From: Candidatus Omnitrophota bacterium
GTDB lineage: Bacteria > Hinthialibacterota > Hinthialibacteria > Hinthialibacterales > JAKPRU01
Length of the DNA stretch: 64,000 nucleotides
NCBI GenBank assembly: GCA_029570205.1
Contig: JAKQSI010000070.1
Coordinates: 1 to 64,000 of the forward strand
Reading direction: 5' to 3'
Shown: piece after piece, positions 9,228 to 11,105 of the stretch
Layout of the letters: each line of letters opens with the position of its first letter
Numbering within the stretch: the stretch's first letter is position 1
Translations under genes and position numbers: made by a program
Notes under the pieces: model-generated
Databases searched by the model: none
What the model was told of the DNA's origin: nothing
Seen by the model: only the letters and a program-made list of their open reading frames with translations

Positions 9228-11105
9228 ATGGCGGAGAGGGCAACAGGCATGAGTTCGAGATCGGAATCCGCAATGATCTGGTGTGTGGGCGACTGGGCAC
9301 GAATCGACCCGCCCACCGGTAGAGTGTTGGAATCGGACATTCCGGGCGAAAGGTTGAGGCAGTCGAATGAGATCTGGGATGGCGGTCAAGCGCGGGTTGC
9401 TCTGAAAGGCGCACGGAACGAGTTTCTGTCTTTCCAGATTGTGATGGAGGCCCTTGAATCGGGCAGCGGAGATATCTTTGTGAGTGCGCAGGATTTCGAG
9501 GGACCTGCCCGTCTGGATGCAGCCCGGTGTGTGCAGTTTTTCCGGGAGATTTATCTACCTGTGGATGAGGGAACCCCGTTCCTGGTTCCGATGACAGGCA
9601 TGACAGGCATGACAGGCACGACAGGCATGACAGGCATGACAGGCATGACAGGCATGACAGGCACGACAGGCATGACAGGCACGACAGGCACGACAGGCAT
9701 GACAGGCATGACAGGCGTGACAGGCATGACAGGCACGACAGGCGTGACAGGCACGACAGGCACGACAGGCGTGACAGGCACGACAGGCGTGACAGGCACG
9801 ACAGGCGTGACAGGCACGACAGGCATGACAGGCACGACAGGCACGACAGGCGTGACAGGCACGGAGGCCTGTCCTACTGGAGGGAGGATGGGAACGATAG
9901 CGCTCTGGGTGGACGTTTATATCCCAAAGGCTATACCGCCGGGAGTGTATAAGTCAGTGTTTCGTATTTCCCATCGGGGCGGATATCGGCTGTCGGAGAT
10001 TACAGTACAGATGGAGGTTTTGGAGCCGATACTACCGGATTCGCTGAGTTTGGATGCGGTTCTGCTGAGTGACGGTCCTCTGAGGGCACATCCATCGGTC
10101 GAACGGGAGTATTACCGGGCTGCGCACGCCCATCGAACCTCATTCGCCATCTATCCGTTCCTGCCGGACGGGTCTCTGCTTCAAGGAGCATCGCCGACGC
10201 TCCGTGGGGTTGGCGACCGGATATCCGTAGCCTCATGGACTTCATGGGATGAACGGTTCGGGCCGATCCTGGACGGTTCCGCATTTCACGATCTTCCGCG
10301 CGGTTCGTTGCCGGTGAACCGGTTCTTCCTGCCGTTCGGATTGGACTATCCATCCTCGTTCCGGCATTGGGGTACGGACCAATACGAGTTGGAGAATCGA
10401 ACGATTCTGACTGAGTTCATTTACCATATTGCGCAAAAAGGATGGATCGAGCCGACTTTCGTCATTCGTTACCAAAGTGCGAAACGGTACGGTTTTTATC
10501 CGTTGGATCTGGAGGACCCGGTTGACGAGGCCGATATTGAAGCGCTTCTTTCTCTCGCCGCGATGATGCGCACGCCTTTGCACAGCCATCCAGGAGTTCA
10601 TGGGGTCCTGTGGGTGGACTTCGCAGTGCGAGAGAATGCCGGGGTGTCCCTGGAGAAATTGCGGGAGTCATTTGACGTATTTGCCATGCGTGCGGAGAAG
10701 GGATGGGACAGTTTCGAGAAGACCGGCGCGAAGAAAGATTTGGAGTTCTGGCTGCGGTGTTCAGGCCGCGGGGTCGGGGAATCGTTTCAGGATATTCATG
10801 ACTATCCGTGGATCGCCCGGCAGCGGAACATCCGGGGGCTTTGTTTTCGAAACGCGGTAAGCCGGATAAACGGGGAGTCCTCGCCGCTGTTTTATCCGGG
10901 GACAGAGTTCGGTTCGGGTGAACCGATCGTCAGCATGAGGCTGAAAGCATTGCGCCGCGGCTTGCAGGAGTATGAATGGCTGGAGTTGGCCTCCGAGCGA
11001 AAGGGGGCACAGGCGGTTCAGGATTTTGTGCGGACGGCTGTTCCCTGCCCTCCCTCAAGATGGCATGAGCAACGGAAACAGCTGCTGGCGCTGGTGGTGA
11101 AATAG
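9228..11105 (+). CDS. DUF4091-type protein interrupted by 30 Gly-X-Thr triplets
   Basis: A 625-residue protein. Its C-terminal part matches the DUF4091 / glycoside-hydrolase-like pattern, ending [22 protein letters not shown], with a beta-sandwich N-terminal part ([31 protein letters not shown]). Between EGTPFLVP and ACPTGG lie 30 in-frame triplets (M/T/V)-T-G encoded by a 9-bp unit at 9591-9860. They read as collagen-like Gly-X-Thr without proline. The insertion falls in the loop before the conserved 'lWVDvyvP' strand. No signal peptide is visible. It begins 16 bases after the epimerase and is probably in the same transcript. Function unknown; related proteins are often in sugar-degradation loci. 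Confidence 0.72.
9591..9884 (+). repeat. 9-bp in-frame tandem repeat (30 units) plus palindrome
   Basis: Thirty perfect-length units (A/G)(T/C)GACAGGC varying only at the first two bases, so that each codon 1 is ATG, ACG or GTG. It ends in the stem-loop ACAGGC-ACGGAG-GCCTGT (9855-9872) followed by CCTAC. This stem-loop has the same 6-6-6 geometry as the array at 1-174. The unit is identical to the left arm of the palindrome, suggesting that the expansion grew from it. Confidence 0.92.

What the first reader, a model, noticed from the sequence alone, without database searches (positions are those of the whole stretch)
9591..9884. Collagen-like Gly-X-Thr expansion grown from a dispersed palindrome inside a DUF4091 protein
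Seen: 30 units of 9 bp in frame, encoding (M/T/V)TG, ending exactly in the hairpin ACAGGC-ACGGAG-GCCTGT plus CCTAC that occurs intergenically elsewhere. The repeat unit equals the hairpin's left arm. The expansion sits in a loop before a conserved strand, so the fold may tolerate it. A mobile palindrome thus seems to have entered a gene and expanded to create a 90-residue low-complexity, collagen-like segment, probably length-variable between strains.
Basis: partly seen in the sequence, partly recalled or inferred. Interest (0 to 1): 0.82.

Follow-up and report, generated by a model that had tools for sequence, protein, structure and literature searches.

The report
REP hairpin arm expanded inside gene
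A small mobile DNA hairpin that is scattered about 290 times through this bacterium's genome sits inside a sugar-enzyme-like gene, and one arm of it has multiplied to 30 copies (4 in the sister species, none in a third), adding a repetitive collagen-like stretch of 90 amino acids to the protein.

Summary
Thirty in-frame 9-bp units (RYG-ACAGGC, 9591-9860) end in the palindrome ACAGGC-ACGGAG-GCCTGT plus CCTAC, inside a 625-codon gene with a GH123 (former DUF4091) fold. Read on the other strand, the palindrome is a GTAG-tagged REP: GTAG-GACAGGC-CTCCGT-GCCTGTC. The genome holds about 290 copies, and its own REP-associated tyrosine transposase (RAYT) gene is flanked by arrays of the identical element. 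The orthologue in the sister genome (94.7-97% DNA identity in the flanks) has the same REP at the same codon with 4 units. A third congener (about 80% identity in the gene) and distant homologues have neither REP nor triplets. All 60 fixed Thr/Gly codons are identical (30 ACA, 30 GGC), so this is DNA-level amplification, not an old collagen domain. The host gene is under purifying selection, and the tract is predicted disordered in a loop of the N-terminal beta-sandwich. REPs inside genes are already known. The new part is a single REP arm multiplied into a 9-bp minisatellite coding for 90 residues. Tail-side arm duplications recur at other REPs of the genus (23 REPs versus 3 head-side), but this is the only long one. 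Expansion mechanism (slippage or RAYT) and triple-helix formation remain untested.

The parts
9228..11105 (+). Host gene: 625-aa protein with GH123 (former DUF4091) fold; flanks under purifying selection
   Evidence: ORF; Foldseek to GH123 enzymes, E down to 1e-23; VIA-align Z 21.5-26.8 to GH123-type enzymes; Pfam GH123 models only below cut-off; dN/dS about 0.15-0.24
9591..9860 (+). Minisatellite: 30 units of 9 bp, RYG-ACAGGC, encoding (M/T/V)TG; equals the tail-side arm of the REP plus two bases
   Evidence: TRF; unit list, 0 synonymous changes in 60 Thr/Gly codons; unique in genome; 4 units in the sister genome
9854..9877 (-). REP element GTAG-GACAGGC-CTCCGT-GCCTGTC (GTAG head, 7-bp stem, 6-nt loop), encoding TGTEACPT on the + strand
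   Evidence: Sequence; hairpin scan; folds at -6.8 kcal/mol as single-stranded DNA, z -3.4; about 290-303 copies in the genome
9558..9590 (+). 5' junction of the insert: conserved loop start ([13 protein letters not shown]), corresponds to PDALIP of homologues
   Evidence: Alignment A1
9878..9932 (+). 3' junction and the conserved strand (I)[10 protein letters not shown] that resumes the fold
   Evidence: Alignment A1; strand 223-232 in the model, pLDDT 76-94

Best explanation
A GTAG-type REP element, of the kind mobilised by RAYT (TnpA-REP), was inserted or recombined in frame into the loop between two strands of the N-terminal beta-sandwich of a GH123-like protein, in the common ancestor of this genome and its sister. 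It replaced or displaced the old loop sequence. Its tail-side arm (GCCTGTC plus two bases) then multiplied as a 9-bp minisatellite, to 4 units in the sister and 30 here, by DNA-level slippage. The hairpin's head-side arm can pair with any copy of the tail-side arm, which would favour slippage. Because the period is a multiple of three and the loop is exposed, the protein tolerates it and stays under selection. The collagen-like (Gly-X-Thr) look is a by-product of translating the arm. Shown: the REP family, its cognate RAYT, the three states among congeners, DNA-level homogeneity, and an intact conserved gene. Inferred: the order of events, hairpin-aided slippage, and neutrality of the product.
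For: REP anatomy. About 290 copies in this genome, 89 in G002, 36 in G001; none in the order relatives searched, 11 in class member G012. RAYT: NCBIfam NF047646 'REP-associated tyrosine transposase', 86.0 bits against a cut-off of 80, flanked on both sides by arrays of the identical REP, with the orthologous locus in the sister. Three states: 30 units here, 4 plus the same REP at the same codon in G002, none in G001. 60/60 identical Thr/Gly codons against mixed usage in the rest of the gene, and mixed usage in nearly all other collagen-like tracts examined. Homologues lack the insert. Extra tail-side arms next to other REPs: 13 + 7 + 3 REPs in G000/G002/G001, against 1 + 1 + 1 head-side (sign test p about 9e-5; copies not fully independent). 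At the RAYT locus itself the arm is duplicated with 11- and 14-15-bp periods.
Against: The sister and G001 loops are about equally long and not alignable, so no clean empty site with target duplication was recovered. Simple insertion is not proven over replacement. Expansion here versus contraction in the sister is not polarised. The array comes from an assembled, incomplete genome (131 contigs), and copy number was not checked against reads. Several of the tail-side duplications at other REPs look like deletion derivatives of tandem REPs, not slippage steps.
Confidence: 0.82

Rival explanations
1. RAYT-driven expansion: the transposase cuts C|T sites 3' of the REP hairpin and rejoins different arm copies, so the array grows in 9-bp steps by transposase-mediated strand transfer, not replication slippage.
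For: TnpA-REP of E. coli cleaves at C|T 5' or 3' of the REP and transfers strands in vitro (PMC8266576). Each 9-bp unit on the REP strand holds exactly one C|T. The genome has its own RAYT with this REP. Duplications lie almost only on the tail side.
Against: No RAYT of this group has been tested. Ordinary slippage explains homogeneous short-unit arrays without it. Nearly all the other roughly 290 REPs, exposed to the same RAYT, have no array.
Confidence: 0.2
2. A functional collagen-like domain: the Gly-X-Thr tract is kept by selection as a triple-helical or glycosylated stalk.
For: Pfam Collagen PF01391 at 1.9e-14, above its cut-off; collagen-like adhesin models hit only this tract, far below their cut-offs. 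Gly-X-Thr tracts occur in a bacterium of another family searched here.
Against: No synonymous change in 60 codons, no Pro or charged residue. Absent from all homologues, and 4 units in the sister. The open frame starts only about 7 codons before the ATG, so there is no signal peptide, unlike in several homologues. Predicted disordered.
Confidence: 0.07
3. Assembly or binning artefact: repeat collapse or chimera in a metagenome-type assembly.
For: 131 contigs; many contigs end in REP arrays. No reads were available.
Against: The array lies inside a 121-kb contig with syntenic flanks on both sides. The longest internal exact repeat is 52 bp. An independently assembled genome has the same REP and 4 units at the same codon.
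Confidence: 0.04
4. The gene is a decaying pseudogene and the expansion simply marks lost constraint.
For: The conserved Asp-Glu pair of homologues (xDE) reads Leu-Glu-Asp in all three congeners, so ordinary GH123 chemistry may be lost.
Against: Open frame intact; dN/dS about 0.16-0.24 between the sisters and about 0.15-0.18 to G001.
Confidence: 0.07

Closest known systems
GTAG-tagged REP elements and REPtrons with RAYT/TnpA-REP (Nunvar 2010 PMC2817692; Di Nocera 2013 PMC3733652; PMC8266576)
   Same: GTAG or GTGG head, short stem-loop, hundreds of copies, direct clusters, a RAYT gene embedded among copies of the same REP.
   Different: The phylum is not among those named in the passages read. 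Copies are mostly in direct tandem arrays, and the arm duplicates on its tail side.
Intragenic REPs (PMC3733652; highest GTAG count in Opitutus terrae; clusters in Thauera and R. conorii encode 43-82 aa)
   Same: A REP inside a conserved gene, translated in frame.
   Different: There, long inserts are clusters of whole repeats. Here there is one whole REP and 29 further copies of a single arm, giving a 9-bp unit and a Gly-X-Thr tract.
Rickettsia palindromic elements (RPE)
   Same: Selfish palindromes inserted in frame into protein genes and translated.
   Different: RPE-4/6 are CGTC-type, without a known transposase (PMC3733652). The element here is GTAG-type with a cognate RAYT, and shows arm expansion.
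Bacterial collagen-like proteins (Scl, Lcl, BclA types)
   Same: Gly-X-Y periodicity; scores against PF01391.
   Different: Not surface-exported as annotated, no proline, no codon diversity, sits inside a glycosidase-fold domain, absent from homologues.

Membership tests
GTAG REP super-family | GT(A/G)G tetranucleotide at the 5' foot, outside the stem | tested here: met
   GTAGGACAGGC... at this locus and in most copies; GTGG or GCAG in others
GTAG REP super-family | Stem 5-13 bp, loop 2-20 nt (Table 1 of PMC3733652) | tested here: met
   7-bp stem, 6-nt loop, -6.8 kcal/mol as ssDNA
GTAG REP super-family | High copy number, dispersed, mostly intergenic, often clustered | tested here: met
   290-303 copies on many contigs. 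39 clusters sampled; this is the only one I could place inside a gene with homologues; no gene caller was available
REPtron | RAYT gene flanked by the same REP | tested here: met
   RAYT at G000:C89 between arrays of 8 and 12 copies; NF047646 above cut-off
REPtron | Flanking REPs in inverted orientation (Nunvar 2010) | tested here: inconclusive
   Both flanking arrays run in the same direction; an inverted partner of a second type (GTAGGTCAGGC...) lies on each side
REPtron | REP cleaved and mobilised by this RAYT | not testable with these tools
   Needs biochemistry
Collagen-like domain | Gly-X-Y periodicity | tested here: met
   PF01391 at 1.9e-14
Collagen-like domain | Conserved as a protein feature among homologues | tested here: not met
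   Absent in G001 and eight distant homologues, 4 units in the sister
Collagen-like domain | Triple helix | not testable with these tools
   Predicted disordered as a monomer; no trimer test
GH123 (former DUF4091) | Beta-sandwich plus TIM-barrel fold of GH123 | tested here: met
   Foldseek E 1e-23 to 1e-16; VIA Z 21.5-26.8, rmsd 3.3-4.8 over 421-469 residues; mean pLDDT only 59
GH123 (former DUF4091) | Pfam model above cut-off | tested here: not met
   12.9 bits against 23.1 for GH123_cat, C-terminal part only; homologue L040 passes at 33.3
GH123 (former DUF4091) | Catalytic Asp-Glu pair | tested here: inconclusive
   Alignment puts LED where homologues have xDE; alignment uncertain there

The most novel reading that the evidence does not exclude
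REP hairpins can start minisatellites: their tail-side arm is repeatedly duplicated, by the RAYT or by hairpin-aided slippage, and when this happens inside a gene with a period divisible by three it creates a new low-complexity, collagen-pattern protein segment from non-coding mobile DNA.
Probability: 0.3. Interest if true: 0.72.

Novelty: new variant of a known kind. Interest (0 to 1): 0.55.

Why it matters
It gives three closely related genomes caught in different states (no element, REP with 4 arms, REP with 30 arms) of one protein gaining a new segment from a mobile hairpin. REPs inside genes and translated palindromes are known. Growth of one arm into a 90-residue periodic tract, with a cognate transposase in the same genome and recurrent arm duplications at other copies, makes it possible to test how selfish hairpins seed repeat proteins. 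It also warns that a Pfam collagen hit can be a DNA repeat in disguise.

Tried and rejected
Old collagen domain: rejected (no synonymous variation, absent in homologues). The same 9-bp array elsewhere in the phylum: none in the 12 other genomes held. Collagen-pattern tracts in G001 (L059, L060): read and found to be other short repeats without the REP arm. RAYT against solved structures by sequence: no match at E 0.01. Clean empty site with target duplication: not recovered, since the G001 loop is unrelated in sequence. Folding 65 nt of REP plus four arms as ssDNA gave no structure stronger than its shuffles, so hairpin-aided slippage has no support from folding energy beyond the REP hairpin itself. 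The other Y1 transposases of the genome (L126, L127) have no GTAG hairpins nearby, so they are not the cognate ones. Literature searches found no report of REP-arm minisatellites coding for protein; the library is open-access only.

Full report
What is there. The window carries a 625-codon gene (9228-11105 +) with 30 tandem 9-bp units at 9591-9860, each RYG-ACAGGC. The last ACAGGC is the left arm of the palindrome ACAGGC-ACGGAG-GCCTGT, followed by CCTAC. Everything is in one frame and reads VP-(M/T/V TG)x30-TEACPT-GG, then the conserved strand [10 protein letters not shown]. The 30 units vary only in the first two bases of the X codon (ATG, ACG or GTG). All 30 Thr codons are ACA and all 30 Gly codons are GGC, while the rest of the gene uses all four codons of each. 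Nearly all other collagen-pattern tracts examined mix their Gly and Thr codons. The array was therefore copied as DNA, recently compared with the time synonymous changes need.

What the palindrome is. Read on the minus strand it is GTAG-GACAGGC-CTCCGT-GCCTGTC, a GTAG-tagged REP with a 7-bp stem and 6-nt loop. The genome holds 290 exact copies of the core, or 303 with up to two mismatches and none for the reversed pattern. Many stand in direct arrays of 33-40 bp period. The sister genome G002 has 89 and G001 36; six genomes of the same order have none. At G000:C89 a gene for a REP-associated tyrosine transposase (NF047646, 86.0 bits, cut-off 80; HVHVIVEP and FDRIIRDE..YISKNP motifs) lies between 8 and 12 copies of the identical REP. 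The orthologous RAYT locus in G002 has the same neighbour gene but fewer copies. This is a REPtron as defined in the literature (PMC2817692, PMC3733652).

History at this locus. G002 (94.7-97% DNA identity over the flanks) carries the same REP at the same codon with 4 units (ATG, ACG, GTG, GTG). G001 (80% identity in the coding flanks) has an unrelated loop of similar length and no REP. Eight more distant homologues (23-30% identity) keep a PDALIP...[12 protein letters not shown] loop without triplets. The insert is thus specific to the G000/G002 lineage. Expansion here or contraction in G002 cannot be told apart, because the outgroup lacks the REP. The 9-bp array occurs nowhere else in this genome, and nowhere in the 12 other phylum genomes held, G002 apart. 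G001 and G002 match records titled Candidatus Omnitrophota bacterium (JAKPYU010000221.1 and JAKPRU010000977.1). The small size of the phylum (14 genomes held) suggests the group now called Hinthialibacterota, which is inference only.

The host protein. Pfam GH123 models score below cut-off, but the predicted structure matches GH123 and related beta-N-acetylgalactosaminidases (Foldseek E 1e-23 to 1e-16; VIA Z 21.5-26.8, rmsd 3.3-4.8 over 421-469 residues). The model's mean pLDDT is 59. The tract (residues 123-221) has pLDDT about 24 and lies between strands of the N-terminal beta-sandwich (102-109 and 223-232). Outside the loop, dN/dS is about 0.16-0.24 between the sisters and about 0.15-0.18 to G001, so the gene is maintained. 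The open frame begins only about seven codons before the ATG, so there is no signal peptide, whereas several homologues start with hydrophobic stretches. The position of the homologues' Asp-Glu pair reads Leu-Glu-Asp in all three congeners.

How it probably arose. Next to other REPs of the genus an extra copy of the tail-side arm within 14 nt is found at 13, 7 and 3 REPs (G000, G002, G001; the locus itself counted once in G000 and once in G002), and an extra head-side arm at only 1, 1 and 1 (sign test p about 9e-5, with the caveat that copies in one array are not independent). Spacings are 9, 11, 12, 14, 15 and up to 20 bp. At the RAYT locus itself the arm is doubled with 11-bp period in G000 and 14-15-bp in G002. 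So tail-side arm duplication is a recurrent event, and the coding locus is the one case with a long run; its period is divisible by three. Replication slippage, helped by pairing of the single head-side arm with any tail-side copy, is the simplest account. Against special weight for the pairing, the REP plus four arms folds no better than shuffled sequence. RAYT action is a rival: TnpA-REP cleaves at C|T on either side of the REP (PMC8266576), and each unit holds one C|T.

Comparison with what is known. REPs inside genes are described (PMC3733652), with clusters of whole repeats coding for 43-82 residues, and Rickettsia palindromic elements are the classic case. I found no report of a single REP arm growing into a coding minisatellite (open-access library only). 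The collagen match (PF01391) is real as a pattern, but the tract lacks proline and charge, is not conserved and is probably not exported. I do not file the protein as collagen-like in function. Verdict: observation confirmed, interpretation supported in its core; a new variant of the known intragenic-REP phenomenon.

Noticed in passing
window 1-174: 5.8 direct copies of a 30-bp unit with the palindrome GTAGGCCAGGCGTCCCTGCCTGGC at the contig end: a second REP type, also found inverted beside the RAYT in L120.
   Followed up: partly
window 50989-51062: A REP with another loop (ACAGGCGGGGACGCCTGT, minus strand, GTAG foot) beside further arm fragments (CTCTATGCCTGTC, GTGACAGGC), apparently a degraded REP cluster.
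   Followed up: no
window 9228-11105, residues about 415-418: The Asp-Glu pair of GH123-like homologues reads Leu-Glu-Asp in this genus, and the signal peptide is missing: possible pseudoenzyme or changed chemistry.
   Followed up: partly
G000 contigs C19, C23, C69, C79, C89, C113 (L104, L107, L128, L129, L100, L134): Many contigs of this assembly end in or next to REP tandem arrays, so REP arrays break the assembly and the true copy number is probably higher.
   Followed up: no
L129 12104-12160 (G000:C79): A 966-codon open frame ends inside a REP cluster, whose translation would form its C-terminus ([20 protein letters not shown]).
   Followed up: no
L112 2924-3507 (G000:C38): 18 direct REP copies of 33-bp period; 33 is divisible by three, and three frames stay open (e.g. 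[20 protein letters not shown]...), an array that could be translated if it fell in a gene.
   Followed up: no
L060 3600-3900 (G001:C23) and L059 start (G001:C618): Other short tandem arrays with open collagen-pattern frames (GRSGQNG..., GVTGLAG...), not made of REP arms.
   Followed up: partly
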